NCBI GenBank assembly: GCA_025355175.1
Contig: JANYAF010000137.1
Span: 1-35,814, forward strand
Direction: 5' to 3'
Source of the DNA: Deltaproteobacteria bacterium
GTDB lineage: Bacteria > Desulfobacterota > Syntrophia > Syntrophales > Smithellaceae
DNA: 35,814 nucleotides
In this document: positions 3,582 to 21,539 of the stretch, piece by piece
Position numbering within the stretch: the first letter of the stretch is position 1
Layout of the letters: each line of letters opens with the position of its first letter
Position numbers and translations under genes: made by a program
The notes under the pieces: model-generated
Told to the model about the DNA's origin: nothing
Database searches by the model: none
Seen by the model: the letters and a program-made list of their open reading frames with translations, nothing else

Positions 3582-5534
3582 CTAAACATCCCAAATGAAA
3601 ATCACACCACTTGTCGGGAAAACCCATTCCTCGTTGGAAATTTTAATGTTGATTGATTTGCCTTTGCTGGCCTGTATAGCGGCCTGGGGATGACGGCCGG
3701 CAAAGAAGCTTTCCGCCCGGACATTTTTAAGCCCGGCATGTTCATAGTGAAAATTGATCTCGAGGCCGCGCGTTGGATACAACAGATACACGGGGAATGT
3801 CCTATTGCCCTTGGCTTTCTTGGTGAGGATTTCGATTTCGATCTTCACTTCCTTGTTGATCTTTTGTTTAAGCTGATCGCTGCCGCACCAGACTTCATAA
3901 CCGCGGTTGGTCTTTTTGGCTTCCATGATCGGAATGTCTTCGCCGTCGATGCGCATTTTCTCCACGGTAAAATCGCGTTCGATCACCAGATCATCGCCGC
4001 CGAGTATCCAGCGGTATTCGCAATGCTCGTCTTCAATGAGTGCTGCCAGCTGTGCGCTATCTGAGGCGCAACCGATCATGAAAATGTCGCTGCGGATGGT
4101 TTTCTTGTATTCGACATGGGTGCGCAACTGGAAATAAGCGTCCGCGCGCCTTTTATGATCGGCGGTTTCCGGCAGTTGTGAAATAGTAATATCGTAGCGG
4201 AAACAGGAGCGCAGTTCCAGCTGGCGGTCTTCCTTGCCAAACAGGGTTTCAAACATTTCATAGTAAATAGCGTCGCCCAGTTCCTCGTCGCGTGTGCGGG
4301 TTTGCAGACAATGCCGGATGATGCTGTCGATGCGCGCGATGGATTTTTCTTCGCCGGGCACAAAAATTCTGCGCAGTCTCGGCTCCACCGCATCGGTTTT
4401 TCCTTTTTGCAAAAAGACGCGCGGGGCGCGTTTACCCAGTGCACAAAGGACCTCGTAGCTGATGGTTTTGGCCTTGTCGGCAATTTCATTGGCGCTGATG
4501 TATTCGTCGTGCTGTCTGCCCAGTAAAACCACTTCATCTCCGACTTCGCAGTCGGGAATATGCGTGACGTCCAGTGTGCACATGTCCATGGACACCCGCC
4601 CGATGACCGGCGCGCGCCGGCTGCGAATGAGTGCTTCGCCCTGGTTAGACAGAATGAAAGGGTAGCCGTCGCCGTAACCCACCGGAATAGTCGCCACGCG
4701 GGTTTTACCTTTGGTGATATAGGTTCTGTTGTAGCCGATGCCGTAGCCTGCGGGGAATTCCTTGACGAGAACGATCGTCGTTTTAAAAGACATTACAGGC
4801 AGTAGCGTGGCGTTACGCTTGGTTTTTTCCGAGGGATAAATGCCGTACGTCATGATGCCGGGACGCGCCATTTCCAGTTTCAACGTCGGGGAATTCAGGA
4901 TCGCGCCGCTGTTATCCATATGCTTGATGGGAATGTCGATGCCTAACCGTTGCAATTCGCCAAGCAGTCCGGAAAACAACCGCCACTGCTCATCGTTGTA
5001 AGGCGTCATCAGTTCACTTGCGGCAAAGTGGCTGAACAGGCCCTCCAATGTGATATGGGGCAGTGTTTTAATGTGGCGGATCAAATCAATAGCTTCGCTG
5101 TGCATGGTGCCGCCGCGTCCCATGCCGGTATCGACTTCCACGTGAACGGATAATGTCCGGGAGGCGTGGGCCAACTGCTCTTCGAGAGCGCGGGCGAACC
5201 CCGCATCGGAAACAGACGGTGTGAGGTGGTATTTGATCATGTCGGGTATTTCCGACAAGGTGGAAGGCCCCAAAATGACAATGGGCGCCTCAACGCCGCT
5301 CACGCGCAACTGAATGCCCTCGTCGGCATTGGCTACACCCAGCATCCGTGCGCCCGCGCGCAAAGCGGCATGGGATATTTCAATCGCACCATGACCGTAA
5401 GCATCGGCCTTGACGGTTTGCATGAAATCAACCGCGTCGCCGAGCAGGCGTTTAATTTCCCGGAGATTGGCGGTAAAATTGTCCAGGTCCACTTCCACCC
5501 AGCTGCGGTATTTCTGCTCGTTTTTCAGGGGCAT
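3582..5534 (-). CDS. alr: Alanine racemase with a long unassigned C-terminal extension
   Basis: Residues 1 to about 375 are a complete PLP-dependent alanine racemase making D-alanine for peptidoglycan. The PLP lysine is K42 in VKADAYGHG. The second catalytic base is Y268 in GIGYNRTY. The ARPGIMTYG, TIPVGYGDGY and RVSMDMC motifs are intact. A normal Alr ends near residue 375, but this frame continues without interruption to residue 650. The extra part of about 270 residues starts near LRRIFVPGEEKS. It has a helical, charged first part and a second part rich in predicted beta strands that ends in a W-x-F-P-x-S-G-V pattern. I do not recognise the extension. The start has only a weak ribosome site (GGATTTGAAAT). 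The cyclase gene lies 66 bases upstream on the same strand, separated by a perfect palindrome. Confidence 0.9.
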   Translation of the reverse strand: MPLKNEQKYRSWVEVDLDNFTANLREIKRLLGDAVDFMQTVKADAYGHGAIEISHAALRAGARMLGVANADEGIQLRVSGVEAPIVILGPSTLSEIPDMIKYHLTPSVSDAGFARALEEQLAHASRTLSVHVEVDTGMGRGGTMHSEAIDLIRHIKTLPHITLEGLFSHFAASELMTPYNDEQWRLFSGLLGELQRLGIDIPIKHMDNSGAILNSPTLKLEMARPGIMTYGIYPSEKTKRNATLLPVMSFKTTIVLVKEFPAGYGIGYNRTYITKGKTRVATIPVGYGDGYPFILSNQGEALIRSRRAPVIGRVSMDMCTLDVTHIPDCEVGDEVVLLGRQHDEYISANEIADKAKTISYEVLCALGKRAPRVFLQKGKTDAVEPRLRRIFVPGEEKSIARIDSIIRHCLQTRTRDEELGDAIYYEMFETLFGKEDRQLELRSCFRYDITISQLPETADHKRRADAYFQLRTHVEYKKTIRSDIFMIGCASDSAQLAALIEDEHCEYRWILGGDDLVIERDFTVEKMRIDGEDIPIMEAKKTNRGYEVWCGSDQLKQKINKEVKIEIEILTKKAKGNRTFPVYLLYPTRGLEINFHYEHAGLKNVRAESFFAGRHPQAAIQASKGKSINIKISNEEWVFPTSGVIFIWDV

Positions 5535-5600: not shown

Positions 5601-7865
5601 TTATTTCTTCGTCATCACAAACACCCCATCCCACGGCTCGGTCGGCGGGCGTTCCTTCAAATTTTTGCACCTTTCCATGTACATCGTCGATACGAAATCG
5701 CCGGGCCGGATGTCCAAGACGCACTGGAATGCTGCAATGGCCTCATCCCATTTCCCTTCCCGGTAGCGCGCCAAGCCTTTGGCAAAAGCATCGGTCAAAT
5801 CTTTAAAATTCGCTTCGTCTTTCTTTTCACCCAGCAGTTCATAAATTTTGACCGGTTTGATTTTGCCTTTGACGCGCACCCCGTCCAGTTCGCGGCAGCA
5901 GATGCTGTCTTTCACTTTTTCGTAAGTAAACTCACTGATGATAATGTTGGTGCCGTATTCCTTGTTGGTGCCTTCCAGCCGCGAGCCGAGGTTAACCATG
6001 TCTCCCATGACGGTATAGTCAAACCGCATCTCTGAGCCCATGTTGCCCACAACCATGTCGCCGGTGTTAATGCCGATGCCGATGTCAAAGACGGGGCGTC
6101 CTTCGTCTTTCCATTTTTTCTGCAGCTGACGCAACGCCTTCATCATCGCCAGTGCGGTGAGGCAGGCCCGGTGGGCATGATCCGGCTGATCAAGCGGTGC
6201 GCCGAATATGGCCATGATGGCGTCGCCCATGTATTTGTCGAGCAGGCCGTCGTGCTGGAACACCTCATTGGTCATGGCCGTGAGATATTCGTTGAGAAGC
6301 GCAACCAGCGCTTCCGGCGTCAGTTTTTCAGAAATGGCGGTAAAGCCGCGGATATCCGAAAATAAGACGGTTAAATCTTTCTTGTCGCCGCCGAGTTTGA
6401 GCTTGGTCGGGTCTTTGAGCATTTCGTTAATGACCGAGGCGGTCAGATAGTATTGAAACGCGCCGCGAATTTTCTTTTTCTCCCGCTCTTCCTTAAAATA
6501 ATGATAAATCGTGATGCCCAGATAGATCATCGCCATGGTTACAAACGGATAAACCAGGTTCAGCCAGATGTTGAATCTGAAAAAAATAAAAAAATTGACG
6601 GCGACAAACGCGGCAACCATCAGAAAGGCGGCGATCATCCCGGAGATCGGCCGCAGGCGTGGAATCAAAAGACCGACGGCCAGGCCGAAAAAGATAATCG
6701 CGCAAATATCCATAAAGTGTGTAAACGCGGAATGGGTTAGGAAATTCTGGTGCAAAATGTTATCAATAACGGTGGCGTGAATTTCCACGCCGGGATAAGT
6801 GGATGAAAAAGGCGTCACGCGCAGGTCATAGATGCCGACGGCGGTTGCGCCGACGAGAACTATCTTGTTTTTGAAGGTTTCCGGGGGAATTCTGTCTTCT
6901 AAAATATCAGCAACGGAATAGTGGGGAAATGTCTGGGGAGGCCCCCGATAGTTGATCAACAATTGCCCCGATTCATTCGTGGGAATAAGAATATCACCAA
7001 TGACGACGTTCTTTGCGCCATAGGTTTCCAAGTTCAGGGACAGAGCCGGAAAATCAAGATAGGCATGAACCAGTGAAACAGCCAGCGAGGAATAATAATT
7101 GTTTCCAAAAGCGATGGCCAGAGGCGACCAGCGGTAAGAGCCGTCGCTGTCCGGCAGCATGTTGAAATAGCCGCCGTTTTGCGCGGCGTCGGCAAGAGTT
7201 GAAATGTTGGCCTCTGGTGCGTAAGCACGCGGCAGATAGGAATCATCAGGCTTGTCTGCGGTGGAGTTGATCATTGCATAACGGGAATTTTCTATGCGCG
7301 CGGCATTATCGGCAATTCTATGCGCTGTGATATGCGCCAGGTCTTTTTCATGCCCCTTGCGTGGAAAATGAAAAAAGTAGCCTAGCGTGATGTTTGCGGC
7401 TTTCTGAATGGATGTGGCCAAAATCGCATCCGTGTCGGCTGCGGTTCTTTTCTTGTTCAGCAGGCTGATGACATTCGAATCGGAAACGCCGCTTTTTTTC
7501 ATTTCGGCGGCCAGCGCGTTGATGGTTTTCAGGTTGGTGTTGTCGTCCGGTTCGGAAAAAACAATATCAAAGCCGACCGCTTTGGCGCCTCCCTTTTTTA
7601 ATTGATCCACCAGACGGGCAATCGTTGTACGCGGCCAGGGCCAGCGTCCCAGTTCAGAAACGCTTTGTTCATCGATGGCGGCAATGACTGTTTCACCGCC
7701 AGGTGCAAGTTTGCCGCGTGACGCCATGCGCAGATCCAGCGTTTTAAGTTCCACGAGCCGCAAAAACTGAAAATCAAACAAAAACAGCATGAGCGCAACC
7801 AGAATCACAAAGATGGTTATTTTGAGAGGCGTGATCTGTAAAAGTGTTTTCAATTTTTGATTCAT
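5601..7865 (-). CDS. CHASE2-domain class III adenylate/guanylate cyclase
   Basis: This 754-residue membrane protein synthesises a cyclic nucleotide in response to an external signal. An N-terminal membrane helix (about 14-34) is followed by an extracytoplasmic CHASE2 sensor (about 35-375), with the typical DERSVSELGRWPWPR-like start (here DEQSVSELGRWPWPR). Three or so transmembrane helices span about 380-460. The cytoplasmic catalytic domain (about 495-680) carries the metal-binding Asp in VLFSDIRGFT and in KYMGDAIMAIFG, and the DYTVMGDMVNLGSRLE motif. The C-terminal tail (about 685-730) resembles one or two TPR-type helices (FAKGLARYREGKWDEAIAAF). Catalytic residues look intact. The Lys before YMGD favours ATP as substrate. 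An AGGGGAAG site precedes the ATG. Confidence 0.92.
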   Translation of the reverse strand: MNQKLKTLLQITPLKITIFVILVALMLFLFDFQFLRLVELKTLDLRMASRGKLAPGGETVIAAIDEQSVSELGRWPWPRTTIARLVDQLKKGGAKAVGFDIVFSEPDDNTNLKTINALAAEMKKSGVSDSNVISLLNKKRTAADTDAILATSIQKAANITLGYFFHFPRKGHEKDLAHITAHRIADNAARIENSRYAMINSTADKPDDSYLPRAYAPEANISTLADAAQNGGYFNMLPDSDGSYRWSPLAIAFGNNYYSSLAVSLVHAYLDFPALSLNLETYGAKNVVIGDILIPTNESGQLLINYRGPPQTFPHYSVADILEDRIPPETFKNKIVLVGATAVGIYDLRVTPFSSTYPGVEIHATVIDNILHQNFLTHSAFTHFMDICAIIFFGLAVGLLIPRLRPISGMIAAFLMVAAFVAVNFFIFFRFNIWLNLVYPFVTMAMIYLGITIYHYFKEEREKKKIRGAFQYYLTASVINEMLKDPTKLKLGGDKKDLTVLFSDIRGFTAISEKLTPEALVALLNEYLTAMTNEVFQHDGLLDKYMGDAIMAIFGAPLDQPDHAHRACLTALAMMKALRQLQKKWKDEGRPVFDIGIGINTGDMVVGNMGSEMRFDYTVMGDMVNLGSRLEGTNKEYGTNIIISEFTYEKVKDSICCRELDGVRVKGKIKPVKIYELLGEKKDEANFKDLTDAFAKGLARYREGKWDEAIAAFQCVLDIRPGDFVSTMYMERCKNLKERPPTEPWDGVFVMTKK

Positions 7866-8054: not shown

Positions 8055-8117
8055 CAAGTAAAATAGATTGCCAGAGGGCGAAAGTTAGTACCCACCAACA
8101 ACGAGGAGGGAGTGCAA

Positions 8118-8402
8118 ATGTCAAAATTAAAGCCTGGTGATGTTCTGAGTTGTGAAGTATGCGGACTTGCTGTCATTGTGGATGAGGAATGCGGCTGTAT
8201 GATCACCGAACTGATCTGCTGCGATGAGCCGATGGGCAACAAAGGTCCCAAACCGCCAAAGAAAGCGGTCGCGGCGCCTAAGAAAAAAGCGGTTGTGAAA
8301 AAGGCAAAACCGGCTGTGAAAAAATCTGTCGCGAAGAAACCGGTGGCGAAAAAAGCAGCTGCTAAAAAACCGACAGCAAAAAAGAAACCGGCCAAAAGAT
8401 AA
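8118..8402 (+). CDS. Desulforedoxin-like metal-ribbon protein with H1-like Lys/Ala/Pro tail
   Basis: This is a 94-residue protein. Residues 1-40 resemble desulforedoxin, or the N-terminal domain of desulfoferrodoxin: LKPGDVLSCEVCG supplies C12 and C15, and C34-C35 form the adjacent pair, the four expected metal ligands. Two further cysteines, C25 and C27, are extra. Residues 43-94 are a low-complexity basic tail of KKAxAKKP-type repeats, like bacterial histone-H1-like tails that bind DNA. Redox or metal binding joined to nucleic-acid binding is inferred. The ATG at 8118 is preferred over an in-frame GTG at 8112, because GGAGGG (8105-8110) is correctly spaced only for the ATG. The gene has its own promoter and a downstream terminator, so it is probably monocistronic. 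Confidence 0.85.
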   Translation: MSKLKPGDVLSCEVCGLAVIVDEECGCMITELICCDEPMGNKGPKPPKKAVAAPKKKAVVKKAKPAVKKSVAKKPVAKKAAAKKPTAKKKPAKR

Positions 8403-8440
8403 TCAGGACAAATGATTGTGGCCATGGCTGGCAGTCTCAG

Positions 8441-8469
8441 GCCCCAGATTTTATGGGCTTGGGGCTTTT
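8441..8469 (+). terminator. Probable intrinsic terminator after the desulforedoxin-like gene
   Basis: GCCCCA (8441-8446) pairs with TGGGGC (8460-8465), followed directly by TTTT (8466-8469). The loop is about 13 bases and the T-run is short, so strength is moderate. The position 40 bases after the stop fits a terminator for the upstream gene. Confidence 0.6.
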
Positions 8470-8527
8470 CATTTGCTGATTGCTGACGCCGATTTTCAGC
8501 TGCATTTAAATTCAGTCGTATATTTTT

Positions 8528-8722
8528 ATGAAAAAAACTGTTCGTCAAACCGATGCGGATGCGGTCCGGCTTCCGCCAGCGCAAAAAAACGGCAGGGATA
8601 ATATCTGGTGTGACAAGTTCAGTTATTTTATCGATCTGGATGCCTGTTCAGCGCGGTCATATCAGAAGAGCGTCTGTCGCCGCTGTTATGCGTCTCTCCT
8701 GCAGGTACCCTTGCCTTTTTGA
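8528..8722 (+). CDS. Possible small cysteine-containing protein, unknown function
   Basis: This is a 64-codon frame with an amino-acid pattern unlike a random frame: a polar start, then WCDKFSYFIDLDAC, then VCRRCYASLLQ, ending in PLPF. The four cysteines, with a CxxC near the end, could bind a metal. I do not recognise the family. The ribosome site is poor (only AT-rich sequence before the ATG) and no promoter of its own is obvious. It lies between the terminator at 8441-8469 and the SDR gene. Confidence 0.4.
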   Translation: MKKTVRQTDADAVRLPPAQKNGRDNIWCDKFSYFIDLDACSARSYQKSVCRRCYASLLQVPLPF

Positions 8723-10595: not shown

Positions 10596-11897
10596 TTATT
10601 TATTTTTACCAGTCAGGCTGCGCACATAAACCGAATTGGCATGTGCCTCCAGCCCTTCCATTTGGGCAAAATGCCGTGTTTGCAAGGACAGCTTCTCGAA
10701 AGCCGCCTGGGTGAAAGATAGCACGCTCATCCGCTTGTAGAAATCATAAACACCCAGGGGCGAGGAAAACCGCGCCGTTCCTTCCGTGGGCAAAATATGA
10801 TTGCTCCCGGCGATGTAGTCGCCCAGGACTTCTGGTGTATAGGATCCCAGAAAAACAGAACCGGCGTTGCGAATTTGTTCTAAAATATCCTTCGGATTTT
10901 CCACCATCAGTTCCAGATGCTCCGGCGCGAAGAGATTGGTCAGCTCCACGGCCTGACCGATGCCGGATGTGATGATGATCGCGCCATATTGAGCCAGAGA
11001 TTTTTCAATGATCCCTTTCTTGGGGAGCTTCTGCAACTGCTTTTCGATCTCTCCCGCCACGCGGCAGGCCAGATCGGGATAGGGCGTGAATAAAACAGCC
11101 GCCGCCATTTCATCATGTTCGGCCTGCGCCAGCATATCCGCCGCCGCATAAGCGGGATTGGCGGTTAGATCGGCAATGATCACCACTTCACTGGGGCCGG
11201 CGATCATATCAATGGCGACCTGTCCGAATACGAGTTTCTTGGCCGCGGCGACATAGGCATTACCCGGTCCCACAATTTTATCCACGCACGGTATAGTTTG
11301 CGTTCCATAGGCCAGTGCGGCGATAGCCTGCGCGCCACCGATCTTGAAGATGCGGTCAACGCCTGCGACGTCGGCCGCTGCGGCAATGAGCGGACTGAGT
11401 TGACCGTCTTTCACGGGGCTTACCAGGATGATTTCCTGGACACCTGCAATGCGCGCCGGAATGGCCGCCATCAGCAGCGTGGAAGGATAAAAAGCCTTGC
11501 CGCCGGGCGCGTAAATACCTGCCCGTTGCAAGGGCAGTATCCGCTGACCCAATTCCACGCCGTCTTCATCAACAATCGAATACCCCGAAGCGATTTGGTG
11601 ACGATGATATTTTTCAATCCGCTGGGCGGCAAGTCGGATCATGTCCCGGTCCTGCGTTTTTACTTTGGCCAGCGCTTCTTTTCTTTCCGTGTCTGTTACT
11701 TCGAGCGTCGCTGCGGTCAAGTCATGGCCGTCAAACTTTTTGGTATAATGAAAAAGTGCTTCATCGCCGCGCACGGAAACATCGTGAATAATCTGGGCCA
11801 CATTTGCCAGCAGATCCGGCTTAAACGCACCGCCTCGCCGCCGTAATTTTTGAAAAAAATTCCGAAATTCCGTTGCGTCTGCTCGAATAATTTTCAT
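10596..11897 (-). CDS. hisD: Histidinol dehydrogenase
   Basis: This 433-residue enzyme has the usual family length. It catalyses the last two oxidations of histidine synthesis (L-histidinol to L-histidine, NAD+ and Zn2+ dependent). Recognisable motifs are YAPGGKAFYPST, VGPGNAYVAAAKK, DMIAGPSEVVIIAD, AEHDEMAAAVLFT, the FAPEHLEL zinc/base segment and GSNHILPTEGTARFSS. The start lies one base from the murA stop, so hisD is translated as the distal gene of prmC-murA-hisD. In many Desulfobacterota this block also contains prfA and hisG; neither is present here. The C-terminus (LTGKNK) ends normally. Confidence 0.97.
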   Translation of the reverse strand: MKIIRADATEFRNFFQKLRRRGGAFKPDLLANVAQIIHDVSVRGDEALFHYTKKFDGHDLTAATLEVTDTERKEALAKVKTQDRDMIRLAAQRIEKYHRHQIASGYSIVDEDGVELGQRILPLQRAGIYAPGGKAFYPSTLLMAAIPARIAGVQEIILVSPVKDGQLSPLIAAAADVAGVDRIFKIGGAQAIAALAYGTQTIPCVDKIVGPGNAYVAAAKKLVFGQVAIDMIAGPSEVVIIADLTANPAYAAADMLAQAEHDEMAAAVLFTPYPDLACRVAGEIEKQLQKLPKKGIIEKSLAQYGAIIITSGIGQAVELTNLFAPEHLELMVENPKDILEQIRNAGSVFLGSYTPEVLGDYIAGSNHILPTEGTARFSSPLGVYDFYKRMSVLSFTQAAFEKLSLQTRHFAQMEGLEAHANSVYVRSLTGKNK

Positions 11898-11898
11898 C

Positions 11899-13149
11899 TT
11901 ATTGTTTCACCCTTTGTATGTCCGCACCCAGCGCGGAGAATTTCTTTTCAATATTCTCATAACCGCGGTCAATATGATAAACCCTCGAAATTTCAGTTGT
12001 TCCTTGGGCAACTAACGCCGCCAGAATCAGCGAGGCGGAAGCCCGCAAATCCGTGGCCATGGTTTGCGCGCCGTAGAGCGTCGGTGTGCCCCGGACAATG
12101 GCGCTGCCGCCCTGAATTGTGATATCCGCGCCCATGCGCATGAGTTCGCTCACATGCATGAAACGGTTTTCAAAAACCGTTTCCGTAATCACGGAAAGGC
12201 CGCTGCCAATGGACATGTAAGCCATGATCTGCGCCTGCAAATCCGTGGGAAAGCCGGGGTGGGGAAGGGTTTTCACATCAACACTATGGATTTTACGACC
12301 GGCGGCGACTTTCAGTCCTCCGTCAATGGATGTGATTTTCATACCGGTGTCGCGCAATTTGTTGATCAGAGCTTCCAGATGCTGGGAGTTGCAGCCTAAC
12401 ACATTGATTTCACCCTGCGTCATTCCGGCGGCGATCATAAACGTGCCGGCTTCGATGCGATCAGGAATAATGGACGCTTCAGTCCCTGTAAGCGATGTTA
12501 CGCCGGTGATCGTGATGACATCCGTTCCCGCGCCGCTGATTTTGGCGCCCATACCTTTAAGAACATCCGCCAGGTTGATGATTTCCGGTTCCCGCGCGGC
12601 ATTGTTGAGCACCGTAGTGCCTTCCGCCAGTGTGGCCGCCATCATGATGTTTTCCGTGCCGGTGACCGTCGGCAGATCAAAATAAATATTGGCGCCTTTG
12701 AGTCTATCCGCCGTCGCTTCAATATAACCGCCGCGCAATTCCACGGAAGCGCCCATATCCTGGAGCGCTTTAATGTGCAGGTTAACAGGCCTTGCGCCGA
12801 TGGCGCAACCGCCCGGCAGGGACACCCGGGCCTTGCCCATGCGCGCCACCAGCGGCCCCAAAACCAATATGGAGGCGCGCATCGTTTTGACGAGATCATA
12901 GGGGGCGACGCTGTTTACGATTTTATCAGCGCTGATTTGCACGGTGCTGTCGCCTTCAATTTCCACACCCATATTTCTTAAAAGCTTATAGGTGGTTTTG
13001 ATATCGACCAGATCAGGAATATTATGAAACGTACATGTTCCTTCCGTCAGCAGCGCCGCCGTCAGAACCGGCAGTGCGGCGTTTTTCGCGCCGCTGACCT
13101 GAACATCTCCATGGAGCGGCTTACCGCCGTGAACGACTATTTTATCCAC
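11899..13149 (-). CDS. murA: UDP-N-acetylglucosamine 1-carboxyvinyltransferase
   Basis: This 416-residue enzyme carries out the first committed step of peptidoglycan synthesis, transferring enolpyruvate from PEP to UDP-GlcNAc in the cytoplasm. K22 in SGAKNAALP and the loop cysteine C115 in [12 protein letters not shown] are intact, so the protein should be fosfomycin-sensitive. The start is GTG at 13147-13149, directly behind the prmC stop, with GGAAGGAG upstream inside prmC. Tight packing with prmC and hisD indicates one transcript. Confidence 0.97.
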
Positions 13150-14031
13150 TTATTTTCTCCTTCCTTTGATTACGCGCGAAAGGCCCGCGTAATCAGCGCG
13201 CACATCAATACGATCATAAAAACCGGCATTTGCCATGATGGTGCGCACACTTTTGCCCTGTTTAGCGCCGATTTCGAGCAAAAGCCAGCCATTTTCTGTA
13301 AGGTGGCTATGTGCCTGATATATTAATTTTTCGTAAAATTCCAGACCTGTTTGTCCGGACAGGAGCGCCTCGCGTGGCTCATAATCTTTAACACCGGCGG
13401 CGAGCGTCTCATATTCATCGGCTCCGATATAGGGTGGATTGGAAACGATCATATTAAATTCGCCATGAACCTGTTCGAATAAATTACTCTGAAGAAAGGT
13501 AATCGAATTTTCCAGTCCCAGAGCGCAAGCATTTTTTTGGGCCAGTTTCAGCGCCGCCGCCGAAATGTCGGTGGCCGTGATTTGTGTCTCGGGAATTTCT
13601 TTGGCCAGGGCCAGTGCAATCGCACCGCTGCCCGTACCGATATCCAAAATACGTGGCTGGTTAAAAGCCTGAGTCCGGCAGATGGCGAGGGCTTCTTCGA
13701 CAATCACTTCCGTATCGGGCCGAGGAATCAGCACGTCATGATTGACTTCCAGTGTGAAGGACCAGAAGGCCTTGCGTCCGGTAATATAGGCGACCGGCTC
13801 GAAGCGCAATCGCCTGTCGAGAAGTTTTTGGAAGGCTGCCATTTGAGCGTTGCTTAGTGGTCTGTCGGGATTCTTGATAAATTCCAACCGGTCGCAGTTT
13901 AGACAAAAAGCCAACAGAACTTCTGCGTCCAGTCTGGCCGAAGGAATTCCCACGGCTTCCAGTTTAATAATTATCTCGGAAATAATGTCGCGAATCGTCA
14001 TGGGGGTTCGTTTTCTTTCGTTGCAAGTCAT
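13150..14031 (-). CDS. prmC: Peptide chain release factor N5-glutamine methyltransferase
   Basis: This enzyme methylates the GGQ glutamine of release factors with S-adenosylmethionine. The SAM site is ILDIGTGSGAIALALA and the catalytic NPPY is in MIVSNPPYIG; the N-terminal helical domain is present. The length is 293 residues from the upstream ATG at 14031, which has AAGGGAA very close to it. Family alignment favours an internal ATG at 14001 (MTIRDIISE), giving 283 residues, but that start has no clear ribosome site, so the start is uncertain. It is first gene of the prmC-murA-hisD block. The expected neighbour prfA is not in the intergenic DNA upstream. Confidence 0.95.
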   Translation of the reverse strand: MTCNERKRTPMTIRDIISEIIIKLEAVGIPSARLDAEVLLAFCLNCDRLEFIKNPDRPLSNAQMAAFQKLLDRRLRFEPVAYITGRKAFWSFTLEVNHDVLIPRPDTEVIVEEALAICRTQAFNQPRILDIGTGSGAIALALAKEIPETQITATDISAAALKLAQKNACALGLENSITFLQSNLFEQVHGEFNMIVSNPPYIGADEYETLAAGVKDYEPREALLSGQTGLEFYEKLIYQAHSHLTENGWLLLEIGAKQGKSVRTIMANAGFYDRIDVRADYAGLSRVIKGRRK

Positions 14032-14743: not shown

Positions 14744-16502
<1,759 letters not shown>

Positions 16503-16523
16503 GGCGCGTTCTTCGAACGCGCC
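16503..16523. repeat. Palindromic hairpin between atpC and atpQ
   Basis: GGCGCGTTC (16503-16511) and GAACGCGCC (16515-16523) form a perfect 9-base stem with a TTC loop. GTAGGG (16499-16504) leads into it, as at 5567 and 27466. There is no T-run, so it may stabilise or process the operon mRNA, or be a dispersed repeat, rather than end transcription. Confidence 0.75.
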
Positions 16524-16560
16524 GCGTTGACCATAAAGCTAGCAATGTAGAGGATCAAAT

Positions 16561-16893
16561 ATGGTTGAAATAAAACGAACATCTGATTCACGGCGCCGGA
16601 AGATGGCGGATCATTTCACCGAAAAGGTCGCCCAAAGAGAGGCTCTGCGAATCAGGGGACTCAAACATAAAAACGAAACAGTCTGGTTTGGTTTGGGGAT
16701 GTTCGGCATTATTGGATGGGCGGTGGCTATTCCCACGTTGATTGGAGTCGCCTTGGGACTCTGGATTGACCGGACATGGCCCAGTCAGTATTCCTGGGCT
16801 CTGATGTTTCTCGTCCTCGGCGTTATCGTCGGATGCATTAATGCCGCCTACTGGGTCAGAAAAATACGTGGACAGATTATAGAAGAGGATTGA
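16561..16893 (+). CDS. atpQ: N-type ATPase accessory membrane subunit AtpQ
   Basis: This 110-residue protein is related to the small AtpI/AtpZ-like membrane proteins. After a basic, hydrophilic N-terminus (1-40) it has two hydrophobic helices (about 42-68 and 78-98) with a WIDRTWPS linker and a basic end. AtpQ occurs only in N-ATPase operons and is proposed to help assemble the c-ring or move ions. Its place between atpC and atpR is the standard order. GAGGATCAAAT precedes the ATG. Confidence 0.88.
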   Translation: MVEIKRTSDSRRRKMADHFTEKVAQREALRIRGLKHKNETVWFGLGMFGIIGWAVAIPTLIGVALGLWIDRTWPSQYSWALMFLVLGVIVGCINAAYWVRKIRGQIIEED

Positions 16894-16894
16894 A

Positions 16895-17197
16895 ATGAAG
16901 ATGAACGCGATGTTTATCATTGTCCTGATGTTTGCCGTGGGACTGGCTCTGGGGGCTTTCTACTTTATCAGTCTGTGGCAGACCGTACAAAGGCTGGGAC
17001 AGACCCAAAGCCGCGCGCGACTGCTGGTAATCAGTTATGTATTGCGTCTGTCGGTTGTTTTAACGGCATTTTACTTTCTTCTGAGGGACGGTCATTGGGA
17101 GTGGCTGGTGGCGGCCATGATCGGATTTGTGGTGATGCGCAAAATCTTCACTTATCATTTTGGGCCGCAAAAGACGATGGAAGCCGTTCATGAATAG
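16895..17197 (+). CDS. atpR: N-type ATPase accessory membrane subunit AtpR
   Basis: This 100-residue, very hydrophobic protein has three predicted membrane helices (about 5-28, 42-62 and 68-85). R51 in VLRLSVV lies inside the second helix, a buried charge that is notable for a membrane protein. It starts one base after the atpQ stop, with GAGGATTGAA as ribosome site. AtpR is the second N-ATPase-specific protein; its biochemical role is not established. Confidence 0.85.
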   Translation: MKMNAMFIIVLMFAVGLALGAFYFISLWQTVQRLGQTQSRARLLVISYVLRLSVVLTAFYFLLRDGHWEWLVAAMIGFVVMRKIFTYHFGPQKTMEAVHE

Positions 17198-17232
17198 AAG
17201 GCGGGTATAGATCAATCTTTAAAGGAGTTCAT

Positions 17233-17958
17233 ATGGAAGTCGTATCTCTCAACCAAATCAGCCCGGATCAGGTGATTATCTGGAGTTGGAGGTTTATTAT
17301 CCTCAATGCGACCATTCTCTATACATGGTTGGTGATGGCCATCCTGGTCGTCGGCTCCTGGCTGATCACACGCAATCTTTCTTCGGAAATGCATGCGTCG
17401 CGCTGGCAGCATTTCCTGGAGGTGGTTATTTCCATCATTCGGGGCGAAATCAGCGAGATGACGAAAAAGGGTCCGGATCATTATGTTCCCCTGGTTGGCA
17501 CGCTCTTTTTGTTTATCTGTGTGTCTAATGTGTTGGTGATTGTGCCGGGGTTTGTTGCGCCAACGTCGTCCATGACGACCACTGCGGCGCTGGCTACCTG
17601 TGTATTTATCGCTGTTCCCTTCTATGGAATATCGCGAAATGGCGTTTCTCATTATGTGAAAGAATATTTTCAACCCACGTTTATTTTTTTCCCGTTCCAT
17701 GTCATGGGCGAAGTGTCCCGGACGCTGGCTCTGACCGTTCGTCTTTTCGGCAATATTATGAGTCATGAAAAAGTCATCGGGATTTTGCTGGCGGTCACGC
17801 CCTTTCTGTTCCCGGTCGTCATGCAAATCCTGGGGCTTTTAATCGGTGTGATTCAGGCCTACATCTTTGCGATCCTTTCCATGGTTTATATAGCCTCCGC
17901 GCTTAGCGCCGAGGATGATTATCCAACAGAAGTAAAGAAAGAAGGCTCTCCAGCCTGA
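17233..17958 (+). CDS. atpB: N-type ATPase F0 subunit a
   Basis: This 241-residue ion-channel stator subunit has five to six membrane helices. The essential stator arginine is R170 in LTVRLFGNIMSHE, and the last long helix carries Q208 and Y210 (GVIQAYIFAILS). Polar residues E160 and R163 at the start of the R170 helix are kept. The ribosome site is AAAGGAG. It sits before atpE and atpF, as in all F-type operons. Confidence 0.95.
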   Translation: MEVVSLNQISPDQVIIWSWRFIILNATILYTWLVMAILVVGSWLITRNLSSEMHASRWQHFLEVVISIIRGEISEMTKKGPDHYVPLVGTLFLFICVSNVLVIVPGFVAPTSSMTTTAALATCVFIAVPFYGISRNGVSHYVKEYFQPTFIFFPFHVMGEVSRTLALTVRLFGNIMSHEKVIGILLAVTPFLFPVVMQILGLLIGVIQAYIFAILSMVYIASALSAEDDYPTEVKKEGSPA

Positions 17959-17985
17959 TAAAATTGAATTAAAGGAGGAGTATTT

Positions 17986-18252
17986 ATGGACAGTGTAAGT
18001 CTCGTCGCGATGGCCTCGATTATCGGTGCAGGTTTGGCAATGGGGATTGGTTCAATCGGTCCCGGTCTGGGTATGGGGCAGGCAATCGCCCAGGCTCTGT
18101 CAGCGATTGCTCAACAGCCGGATGAAAGAAACTCTTTAACCCGAACACTGTTTGTCGGATTGGCCATGATAGAATCCATTGCCATCTACTGCTTTGTTAT
18201 TTCCATGATTCTGATTTTCGCCAATCCTTTCTGGGGTTTCATTATAAAGTGA
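17986..18252 (+). CDS. atpE: N-type ATPase F0 subunit c (rotor ring)
   Basis: This 88-residue hairpin forms the membrane rotor ring. Helix 1 contains GSIGPGLGMGQA, the loop is QQPDERNS, and helix 2 carries the ion-binding carboxylate E63 followed by S64 and Y68. E-S-x3-Y matches Na+-binding c subunits such as that of Ilyobacter. However, the residue aligned with their helix-1 Gln (Q32 there) is M30 here, and a Gln appears two positions later as Q32. Most N-ATPase c subunits I recall have Glu at that site. Ion specificity is therefore unclear. A strong AAGGAGGAG precedes the ATG. Confidence 0.95.
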   Translation: MDSVSLVAMASIIGAGLAMGIGSIGPGLGMGQAIAQALSAIAQQPDERNSLTRTLFVGLAMIESIAIYCFVISMILIFANPFWGFIIK

Positions 18253-18264
18253 GGGGGATGATCC

Positions 18265-19035
18265 ATGCATATCGACTGGTTTGTTTTTTTAGCGCAAATC
18301 TTTAATTTCCTCCTGCTCATGTATTTGCTGAAACGCTTTCTTTACGGGCGGATTATCAAGGCCATGGATGACCGGGAAGCAAAAATTGCCGCGTGTTTTG
18401 CCGAAGCCGAACGGCTGAAAGAAGAAGCCAGCGAGGCAGTCGAGCTTTATGAAAAGCGCAACATGTTGCTCGGCCAGAAGAAAGAGCAGATGATCAACGA
18501 GGCAACAATGGCTGCCGATGCCAAGCGCAAGGAGCTGATGGAGAAAGTACGAGAAGAAGTCGATGCGGTTAAAGCGCGCTGGCAGGATATGCTGGTCCGG
18601 GAAAAGGATGCCTTTTTTTATGATCTGCGGCAACGGGCGGCTAAGCAATTATATGCCACGGCTCGCAAGGCGCTCGCTGATCTGGCAGACGCCGATCTGG
18701 ATGACCGGATTGTCGATGAATTCCTCCGGCGTGTCAAAACACTTGATGCCGAAAAAAGCGTTCAGATCCGCAAAGCGATCAGCGGAGTCAACAATCAGGT
18801 CATTATCCAGAGCGCTTTCGATATTTCCGCCTCGAGGCAGGTACAGATTGAGGAAGTCTTGAAAAAGCAGATCACTAACGGTTTTAAGGTCCGTTATCTG
18901 CGTGAGCCGGATATTGTATCAGGCATCGAATTGCGGGTGAATGGGCATAAGATCGCCTGGAGTCTTAATGAGTATCTGGAGACCCTTGTGGAAAATCTGA
19001 CCGAAACGCTCCAGAAAGAGGCGCATGCCACATAA
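18265..19035 (+). CDS. atpF: N-type ATPase F0 subunit b with delta-like C-terminal domain
   Basis: This 256-residue protein is much longer than a usual b subunit (about 160). Residues 1-25 are the membrane anchor, about 30-135 the charged coiled-coil stalk. From about 178 to 245 the sequence resembles the C-terminal domain of the delta subunit: VIIQSAFDISASRQ, then KVRYLREPDIVSGIELRVNG, then AWSLNEYLETL, matching delta's conserved 'G-[IV]-x-[IL]-[RK]-x-[GN]' and 'S-[LV]-x-x-x-[LR]-x-x-L' pattern. A separate atpH is missing from the operon, so this fusion probably supplies the stator contact to alpha. Start ATG follows GGGGG closely after atpE. Confidence 0.92.
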   Translation: MHIDWFVFLAQIFNFLLLMYLLKRFLYGRIIKAMDDREAKIAACFAEAERLKEEASEAVELYEKRNMLLGQKKEQMINEATMAADAKRKELMEKVREEVDAVKARWQDMLVREKDAFFYDLRQRAAKQLYATARKALADLADADLDDRIVDEFLRRVKTLDAEKSVQIRKAISGVNNQVIIQSAFDISASRQVQIEEVLKKQITNGFKVRYLREPDIVSGIELRVNGHKIAWSLNEYLETLVENLTETLQKEAHAT

Positions 19036-19093
19036 AGTAAGGCTATCGGCTGAAGGCTGAAGGCAAAACGGAAAAGATGTCAGGAGGCGTAGA

Positions 19094-20662
19094 ATGAATT
19101 CAGAGGTTAGCAAACTGGAAAATCAGGAATTAAAGACCTTTCTAGACGACACGTTTGACACGATGGATAAGGTTCTGGATGGGCAGAATCCTGATCTGCG
19201 GCAATATGAGGTAGGCCAGGTGGAATTTGTCGGACGTGATATTGCCAGAGTCAGCGGTCTGCCGAATATCCGCGCGGAGGAGCTGGTTCGCTTTGCAGGA
19301 AATTATATGGGACTGGTTTTTAATATCGACCCGAAGGAAATTGGCGTTGTTCTTTTGGATCCCAGTGAAAACCTGCAGGTCGGGTCGGAAGTGCAGCGTA
19401 CCAAGCGTGTTCTCGATGTGCCGGTGGGAGACGGGCTTTTAGGACGGGTGGTCGATCCCCTCGGACGGCCGCTGGATGGCCTGGGCGAAGTCAATACGGT
19501 CATGCGCCTGCCGGTGGAAAGACCCGCGCCAGCGGTTATGGACCGCGCGCCGGTTGTCGTACCGCTGCAGACAGGCATCAAGGTGATCGATGCACTGATT
19601 CCCGTCGGTCGCGGCCAGCGCGAATTAATCTTGGGCGACAGAATGACCGGCAAAACGGCCATTGCCATTGATACGATTATCAACCAGAAGGAAACCGGCA
19701 TTATTTCTATTTATTGCGCCACCGGCAAGAAAAGCGCTGATGTGGCCAAGGTGATTGCCGATTTGCGGGATCACGGCGTGATGGGATCATGCATTGTGGT
19801 GGTGGCCACCGGTGAAGACACACCGGGCTTGCAGTTTATCGCGCCTTACGCGGCCACAAGCATGGGGGAATATTTTGTAGAGCGTGGCAGGGACGTTTTG
19901 ATTATCTATGATGATCTGACATCTCATGCACGGGCCTACCGTGAAGTGTCGCTGCTTTTGCGGAGACCTCCCGGACGTGAAGCTTTTCCTGGTGATATTT
20001 TTTATATCCATTCCCGACTGCTTGAGCGCTCCACGCATATGAAGCCGGAATTGGGCGGCGGGTCGTTGACGTCATTGCCGATTACGGAAACAGAAGCGCA
20101 GGATATGTCGTCTTACATTCCGACCAACCTGATTTCCATTACGGACGGGCAGATTTATCTCTCGCCGGTTCTTTTCAGCAAGGGCATTCTGCCGGCGGTG
20201 GATGTCGGTAAATCCGTATCGCGGGTGGGCGGCAAGACGCAATTGCCCGCATACCGTTCCGTGGCGGGCGATCTTCGACTGTCCTACTCGCAGTTTGAAG
20301 AGTTGGAATCCTTCTCCCGTTTCGGCACAAGGCTTGATGAAGCTACGCGCCGCACGTTGGAACGCGGCTGGCGCGTGCGTGAAATTTTGAAGCAGGGTCA
20401 ATACAAACCGCTGCGCGCCTCCGAGCAGATTGCCTCTCTACTTTCTGTTACCGGCGGCGCTCTGGATCTTGTCCCGACGGACAAGATTCGTGAAGTGGAA
20501 AAACACCTGTTGCAAGCCGTCAATGAACAACTGCCGGAATTGTGCAGCCGGATTGAAGCGGGGAAAAAACTGGAAATGGCGGATCGCGACAGCATTATGA
20601 ATAAAATCAAACCGATTATTAAACCTTTTGAAGTGGTTGAGGACGCTAATGCAAACAACTGA
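19094..20662 (+). CDS. atpA: N-type ATPase F1 subunit alpha
   Basis: This 522-residue non-catalytic nucleotide-binding subunit alternates with beta in the F1 head. The P-loop is GDRMTGKT at 181-188, where ordinary alpha subunits have GDRQTGKT, so Q is replaced by M. The [27 protein letters not shown] and [21 protein letters not shown] segments are intact. AGGAGGCGTAGA precedes the ATG. The end overlaps atpG by 14 bases. Confidence 0.95.
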
Positions 20663-21539
20663 GTCCCTGAAAAGAAGAATGAAGAGCGCTGGTGATCTTT
20701 TATCAGTTGTCAAAACGATGAAGGCACTCGCGGCGGTGAGCATACGGCAATACCAGAAGGCGGTCGAATCACTCACCGATTATAACCGGACGGTTGAAAT
20801 GGGTCTGCAAATTGTGCTCAAGGAACGAATGGGCGCAACCCTCAAGAGAAAGGCGTCCTCCATGAAAAGTTTGGGGGTGATTGTCTTCGGTTCCGATCAG
20901 GGCTTATGCGGACAGCTCAATGACCAGATATCTGTTTTTACGCTGGATTACATCAAAAAAACCGGCGTTAAAAAGGAAAAGCGGAAAGTACTTTCCATTG
21001 GCGCCCGCGTCGCCGACTATGTCGAAGATGCCGGACAGCCGGTGGACGAGTTAATGGGTACGCCTGCTTCCACGGCGGGTATCACGCCACTGGTTCAGGA
21101 AATCATCATGATTATCGATGAGTGGCATTTCCGTCAAAACGTTGATCATTTCCTTTTGTTTTATAATAAATATGTCAGCGGAGCGATCTATCATCCCCAC
21201 ATGGTTGAACTCCTGCCTGTCAACAGGGAGTGGCTCAAGGAAATCGCACGAAAAAAATGGGATTCCAAGTCGCTGCCCATTTTCCGGATGGACGGCGATC
21301 AGATTTTTTCCTCGCTAATCCGGGAATATCTTTTTGTGTCGCTTTATCGCGCGTTTGCCGAGTCACTGGCCAGTGAAAATGCCAGTCGTCTGGCGTCCAT
21401 GCAAAATGCCGAGAAAAATATTGAAGAACAGTTGCAGGATCTGCACATGCAGTTTCACCGCACGCGGCAGATGACAATTACCGAGGAACTTCTGGATATC
21501 GTTGCCGGTTTTGAGGCGATGCAGGAAGAGGCATCATAA
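20649..21539 (+). CDS. atpG: N-type ATPase F1 subunit gamma
   Basis: This is the central rotor shaft, 296 residues from the ATG at 20649. I chose that start over an upstream TTG at 20628 because GAGG lies seven bases before it and it begins [17 protein letters not shown], the usual start of gamma. Long N- and C-terminal helices form the coiled coil ([19 protein letters not shown] near the N-terminus and '[24 protein letters not shown]' region split across residues about 250-280). The core has [14 protein letters not shown]. It completes the nine-gene operon. Confidence 0.93.

What the first reader, a model, noticed from the sequence alone, without database searches (positions are those of the whole stretch)
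3582..4410. Unassigned C-terminal extension of about 270 residues on alanine racemase
Alr normally ends near residue 375; this frame goes on to 650 with well-formed protein sequence, starting helical and charged and ending beta-rich. The part is uninterrupted and in frame, so it is not a simple read-through into junk. It may be a new regulatory, binding or localisation domain joined to D-alanine production, and it lies beside a membrane cyclase that could share a signal.
Basis: partly seen in the sequence, partly recalled or inferred. Interest (0 to 1): 0.65.

Follow-up and report, generated by a model that had tools for sequence, protein, structure and literature searches.

The report
Alanine racemase with unknown extra domain
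In an entire order of anaerobic bacteria (Syntrophus and Smithella relatives), the enzyme that makes D-alanine for the cell wall carries a second, undescribed domain of about 275 residues, together with a switched active-site residue, which suggests a lineage-specific way of controlling an essential and well-studied enzyme.

Summary
Window 3582-5534 (-) is one 650-residue frame: a normal alanine racemase (Alr, residues 11-375) followed by ~275 residues matching no Pfam, NCBIfam, PHROGs, PADLOC or PDB sequence family. It is no frameshift: the fused gene occurs in 139 of 155 genomes of the order (53/53 genera), and every apparent absence that could be examined is an assembly gap or a contig end. 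It was absent from all ~379 sampled genomes of the rest of the phylum. Extended Alrs form one clade. The extension has two parts: a 66-residue helical connector of invariant length that is more conserved than the racemase itself, and a ~210-residue beta domain whose predicted fold resembles the N-terminal domain of M1 aminopeptidases (structural lead only; profile comparison gives nothing). All 92 distinct extended Alrs also carry Glu133 where ordinary Alrs have the carbamylated lysine (Lys129), plus clade-specific changes at the substrate entryway. Most likely the extension docks on the racemase dimer and modulates it; this is inferred. A CHASE2 cyclase gene precedes alr in 42 of 73 loci, and D-Ala-D-Ala ligase follows in many. 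New variant of a known kind.

The parts
4410..5504 (-). Alanine racemase catalytic domain (residues 11-375): PLP lysine K42, second base Y268, PLP/substrate arginines R140 and R224, Y360
   Evidence: TIGR00492 E 7e-103; PF01168 and PF00842; catalytic residues invariant in 92 sequences and shared with non-extended Alr
5136..5138 (-). Codon of Glu133, at the place of carbamylated Lys129 of Geobacillus Alr
   Evidence: Aligned to K129 of 1sft/1bd0; E in 92/92 extended Alrs; K in 28/28 non-extended Alrs of the phylum
4212..4409 (-). Connector and helical hairpin of the extension (residues 376-441), length 66 in 91 of 92 sequences
   Evidence: Mean pairwise identity 78% against 69% for the racemase domain; length and gap count; helices predicted at 399-415 and 417-432 with low confidence
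3585..4211 (-). Beta domain of the extension (residues 442-650), invariant Cys489 and Cys505, ending W-x-F-P-x-S-G-V-x-F-x-W
   Evidence: AlphaFold2 pLDDT mostly above 85 in this part; Foldseek to M1 aminopeptidase N-terminal domains E 4e-6, 3kd4 TM 0.41
5601..7865 (-). CHASE2 - class III nucleotidyl cyclase - TPR protein, gene directly upstream of alr (66 bp gap)
   Evidence: Pfam CHASE2 and Guanylate_cyc; conserved neighbour in 42 of 73 loci

Best explanation
This is the sole housekeeping alanine racemase of the Syntrophales, to which one C-terminal module was added once, in the ancestor of the order. Shown: the fusion is order-wide, single-origin and under purifying selection; the racemase catalytic residues are intact; the active site differs from that of all sampled relatives by a fixed Glu in place of the carbamylated lysine and by changes at the substrate entryway. 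Inferred: the invariant-length helical connector packs against the racemase dimer instead of acting as a loose tether, and the beta domain binds an effector or partner, so that the extension tunes racemase activity (autoregulation by a C-terminal extension). Glu133 would supply permanently the negative charge that positions the PLP arginine, which in other Alrs comes from CO2 bound to lysine or from a chloride ion.
For: Order-wide fusion, 53/53 genera, 90/92 good genomes, both exceptions cut by contig ends; absent from ~379 other phylum genomes; one Alr per genome in the 11 order genomes of the phylum sample. One clade, SH-aLRT 100, long stem of 1.15 changes per site. Connector 376-441 more conserved than the racemase and without indels in 91/92, as expected for a docked interface. 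Glu133 and the entryway changes S173 and E174 fixed in step with the extension. Other PLP enzymes are autoregulated by C-terminal extensions, e.g. ALAS2 and CBS (PMC9081730). A negative charge at the Lys129 position is held to be critical for placing the arginine (PMC2743695).
Against: No ligand, effector or contact was shown. The full-length model leaves the connector at pLDDT about 40-45 and the domain arrangement undefined (pTM 0.54). High conservation would also fit oligomerisation or partner docking. Clade-specific active-site residues may have been fixed on the same long stem without any link to the extension.
Confidence: 0.42

Rival explanations
1. Docking or scaffold module: the extension brings the racemase to D-Ala-D-Ala ligase or to another cell-wall or membrane partner (possibly the CHASE2 cyclase), so that D-alanine is made where it is used; it does not alter catalysis.
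For: Genes for D-Ala-D-Ala ligase lie directly downstream on the same strand in at least 23 of 69 loci, two ligase paralogues in a row in L140; the cyclase lies upstream in 42 of 73. Fusions of cell-wall enzymes restricted to single lineages are known (MurB/C, MurC/Ddl: PMC4803751).
Against: In the Smithella-type genomes the ligase gene is inverted or absent from the neighbourhood and the cyclase is often absent too, yet the extension is just as conserved. No transmembrane segment in the extension (highest 19-residue hydropathy 1.17).
Confidence: 0.27
2. Oligomerisation or stability module: it only holds the dimer together or makes a higher oligomer.
For: Alr is active only as a dimer (PMC3146814); the connector is very conserved and of fixed length.
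Against: A 210-residue beta domain with many invariant residues, among them Cys489, Cys505, Arg508 and Arg589, is more than a clamp needs.
Confidence: 0.18
3. Second enzyme: the extension is itself catalytic, giving a bifunctional protein.
For: About 275 well-conserved residues with invariant Cys, Tyr, Arg and Trp.
Against: The closest folds are non-catalytic N-terminal domains; no known catalytic motif or family.
Confidence: 0.08
4. Artefact: two genes joined by sequencing error or read-through.
For: Draft assemblies only for the window itself.
Against: Same fusion in more than 130 independent assemblies, including a single-contig genome (G458, L140), with dN/dS far below 1.
Confidence: 0.01

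Closest known systems
Alanine racemase (Alr; TIGR00492, PF01168 + PF00842)
   Same: Full two-domain racemase, all catalytic residues, one copy per genome
   Different: About 275 extra C-terminal residues; Glu for the carbamylated Lys129; S173 and E174 in place of the Ala-Asp of the substrate entryway; Gly before the catalytic Tyr
B. anthracis Alr with chloride in place of carbamylated lysine (PMC2743695)
   Same: Another natural replacement of the carbamylated lysine that keeps a negative charge next to the PLP arginine
   Different: There Asn plus a chloride ion, accompanied by Thr316; here Glu with Ser315, and an added domain
Other Alr fusions: MurF-Alr of Bacteroidota (NF008897, example L182) and membrane-bound VanT serine racemases (NF033132)
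   Same: Alr domain joined to another module
   Different: In both the extra part is N-terminal and of known kind; here it is C-terminal and matches no family
N-terminal beta domain of M1 aminopeptidases / LTA4 hydrolase, and 3kd4 (putative protease BDI_1141)
   Same: Predicted beta-sandwich fold (Foldseek E 4e-6, TM about 0.35-0.41)
   Different: No sequence or profile similarity; no protease domain follows; different partner enzyme
C-terminal regulatory extensions of PLP enzymes (ALAS2, cystathionine beta-synthase; PMC9081730)
   Same: C-terminal addition to a PLP enzyme, lineage-restricted in ALAS
   Different: Other PLP fold types; unrelated sequence; regulation not shown here

Membership tests
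Alanine racemase (TIGR00492) | Full-length match above the curated cut-off | tested here: met
   344 bits against a cut-off of 168
Alanine racemase (TIGR00492) | PLP lysine, catalytic tyrosine, PLP arginines | tested here: met
   K42, Y268, R140, R224 invariant in 92 of 92
Alanine racemase (TIGR00492) | Carbamylated lysine at the Lys129 position (usual, not obligatory) | tested here: not met
   Glu133 in 92/92; Lys in 28/28 non-extended relatives
Alanine racemase (TIGR00492) | Racemisation of alanine | not testable with these tools
   Needs enzyme assay or complementation
M1 aminopeptidase N-terminal domain (PF17900) | Profile match | tested here: not met
   No Pfam hit; hhalign probability about 1%
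M1 aminopeptidase N-terminal domain (PF17900) | Shared fold | tested here: inconclusive
   Foldseek E 4e-6 but TM 0.35 and rmsd about 8
DUF3857 (PF12969) | Profile match | tested here: not met
   No Pfam hit; hhalign probability below 1%. That 3kd4 is a DUF3857 protein is from memory
Membrane-bound VanT racemase | N-terminal membrane domain before the racemase | tested here: not met
   Racemase starts at residue 11; NF033132 scores 206 against a cut-off of 900
MurF-Alr bifunctional enzyme (NF008897) | N-terminal MurF domain | tested here: not met
   316 bits against a cut-off of 804; only the Alr part matches

The most novel reading that the evidence does not exclude
An order-defining, allosterically gated alanine racemase: the extension is a sensor domain that controls D-alanine supply, coupled to an active site made independent of CO2 by a built-in glutamate, and tied to the signalling of the co-located CHASE2 cyclase.
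Probability: 0.15. Interest if true: 0.75.

Novelty: new variant of a known kind. Interest (0 to 1): 0.55.

Why it matters
Alanine racemase is one of the most studied cell-wall enzymes and a drug target, and it is normally a bare two-domain dimer. A whole order of syntrophic anaerobes has a permanently altered form: an added domain of a sequence family not in the libraries, and a third natural answer (after carbamylated lysine, and asparagine with chloride) to how the active-site arginine is held. If the extension gates activity, it is a built-in control point of D-alanine supply in slow-growing, energy-limited bacteria, and the contrast of full-length and truncated enzyme makes that directly testable.

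Tried and rejected
Frameshift or read-through: rejected. Known domain: none in Pfam, NCBIfam, PHROGs, PADLOC or PDB, by sequence or profile. Mobile or viral origin: no relative in viral contigs, none in plasmids, only a chance-level hit in phages. Paralogues of the extension elsewhere in nine order genomes: none up to E 10. Homology to M1_N or DUF3857 by hhalign: none; but M1_N and DUF3857 do not find each other either, so this negative is weak (a first run, picked wrong strands for some rows and is discarded). Other long Alr frames in the phylum: the longest listed (729 codons, G288) is an upstream run-on, with Alr ending at the usual place. Surveying other phyla with the profile was not possible because the search centre must be a genome of this phylum.

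Full report
OBSERVATION. The minus-strand frame 3582-5534 encodes 650 residues. Residues 11-375 are a complete alanine racemase (TIGR00492, 344 bits; PF01168 and PF00842). Residues 376-650 match nothing in Pfam, NCBIfam, PHROGs, PADLOC or the PDB by sequence, nor as a 46-sequence alignment.

DISTRIBUTION. A genome-wide scan with the extension gave 105 relatives; the best 80 are all from Deltaproteobacteria, Syntrophaceae, Smithella or Syntrophales records or loosely named MAGs, and phmmer places the extension behind Alr in the same frame nearly everywhere. In the order, 139 of 155 genomes have it, 53 of 53 genera, 90 of 92 good genomes. In a sample of 395 genomes of the phylum only the 16 order members do. 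I re-examined the 16 genomes without a match and four with doubtful ones: 13 have no Alr C-terminal domain in the assembly, 6 have Alr cut at a contig end, 1 has the full fusion. No genome of the order was found with a complete Alr frame that lacks the extension. Each of the 11 order genomes in the phylum survey has a single Alr. The single-contig genome G458 has 3,179,300 bases, which from memory is the size of Syntrophus aciditrophicus SB; this identification was not tested. Nothing related was found in viral contigs or plasmids, and only a chance-level hit in phages.

ORIGIN AND SELECTION. A tree of 45 extended and 28 ordinary racemase domains puts all extended ones on one side of a branch with SH-aLRT 100 and a stem of 1.15 changes per site (quick method, the careful search was not finished). 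Median dN/dS is 0.14 for the racemase domain, 0.09 for residues 376-441 and 0.20 for 442-650; mean pairwise identities are 69%, 78% and 57%. The 66-residue connector has the same length in 91 of 92 distinct proteins. A flexible tether would not be conserved like this, so I infer that it packs against the racemase or its dimer partner.

STRUCTURE. AlphaFold2 of the extension alone gives mean pLDDT 80 and pTM 0.74: two helices (ext. 20-37 and 41-56, low confidence) and a well-predicted beta domain. Foldseek finds the N-terminal beta domain of M1 aminopeptidases (best E 4e-6; TM about 0.35) and 3kd4 (TM 0.41) in the PDB, and an M1-like protein of Tupanvirus in the viral library. Low TM and rmsd near 8 make this a fold-level lead only. 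Profile comparison with M1_N and DUF3857 sequences collected from the phylum gave probabilities near 1%, so membership in either is not claimed. The full-length model (pLDDT 77, pTM 0.54) does not define how the domains sit together.

ACTIVE SITE. Comparing extended and ordinary racemase domains showed fixed differences. The most striking is Glu133, aligned directly with Lys129 of Geobacillus Alr, which is carbamylated and holds the PLP arginine. It is Glu in 92 of 92 extended proteins and Lys in 28 of 28 ordinary ones. A DNA pattern for Glu-x-Asp-Thr-Gly-x-Gly-Arg hit all 16 order genomes of the phylum sample; among the nine other hits, those that could be translated were not Alr genes, and none of the nine loci encodes an Alr detectable by phmmer. 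Outside the phylum I looked at few sequences: Lys or Gln in six plasmid-borne Alrs. Published work describes Lys (carbamylated) or Asn with chloride at this place and holds a negative charge there to be critical (PMC2743695; PMC3146814). Glu would supply it permanently (inference). Further fixed changes are Ser173 and Glu174 for the Ala-Asp pair of the inner and middle substrate entryway, Gly267 before the catalytic Tyr268, and Gly141 after the PLP Arg140. The specificity tyrosine (Y360) is kept, so alanine remains the likely substrate.

NEIGHBOURHOOD. A CHASE2-cyclase gene lies within 400 bp upstream on the same strand in 42 of 73 loci with enough sequence; the L140 copy is 60% identical to the window's. 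D-Ala-D-Ala ligase follows directly in at least 23 of 69 loci, in L140 as two paralogues with a putative outer-membrane protein between them and MlaD further on. In many Smithella-type genomes these neighbours are missing or inverted while the extension stays.

VERDICT. Real, ancient, order-wide and undescribed in the libraries and papers I could search. The most likely role is control of the racemase by a docked C-terminal module; a scaffold role is the main rival. What is shown is the architecture, the distribution, the selection and the linked active-site change. The mechanism is inferred.

Noticed in passing
window 14747-21536 (+): ATP synthase genes in the order beta, epsilon, two small membrane proteins, a, b, alpha, gamma with no delta subunit, which from memory is the order of N-ATPase operons.
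   Followed up: no
L140 9128-12580: Two D-Ala-D-Ala ligase paralogues next to the extended alr, separated by a putative outer-membrane protein without a Pfam match; both paralogues match D-Ala-D-Ala ligase subfamily models. Tandem ligase hits recur in several other loci.
   Followed up: partly
window 8057-8584: The longest frame here (-) is probably the antisense of a small lysine-rich protein with a cysteine motif (GDVLSCEVCGLKVIVDEECGCATIDLICCEEPM in L063) on the + strand, upstream of the cyclase or of alr in about 8 of 47 loci.
   Followed up: no
L067 and L074: Two MAGs have the extended alr split by a frame change inside the racemase part, at a similar place in both; probably assembly error.
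   Followed up: no
L135 2390-5500: In a non-extended relative outside the order, alr is directly followed by genes that look like mlaE, mlaF and mlaD; in the order the ligase genes stand between alr and the Mla genes.
   Followed up: no
window 10599-14031 (-): Genes that look by sequence like prmC, murA and hisD lie end to end a few kb from alr, so a second cell-wall gene is near.
   Followed up: no
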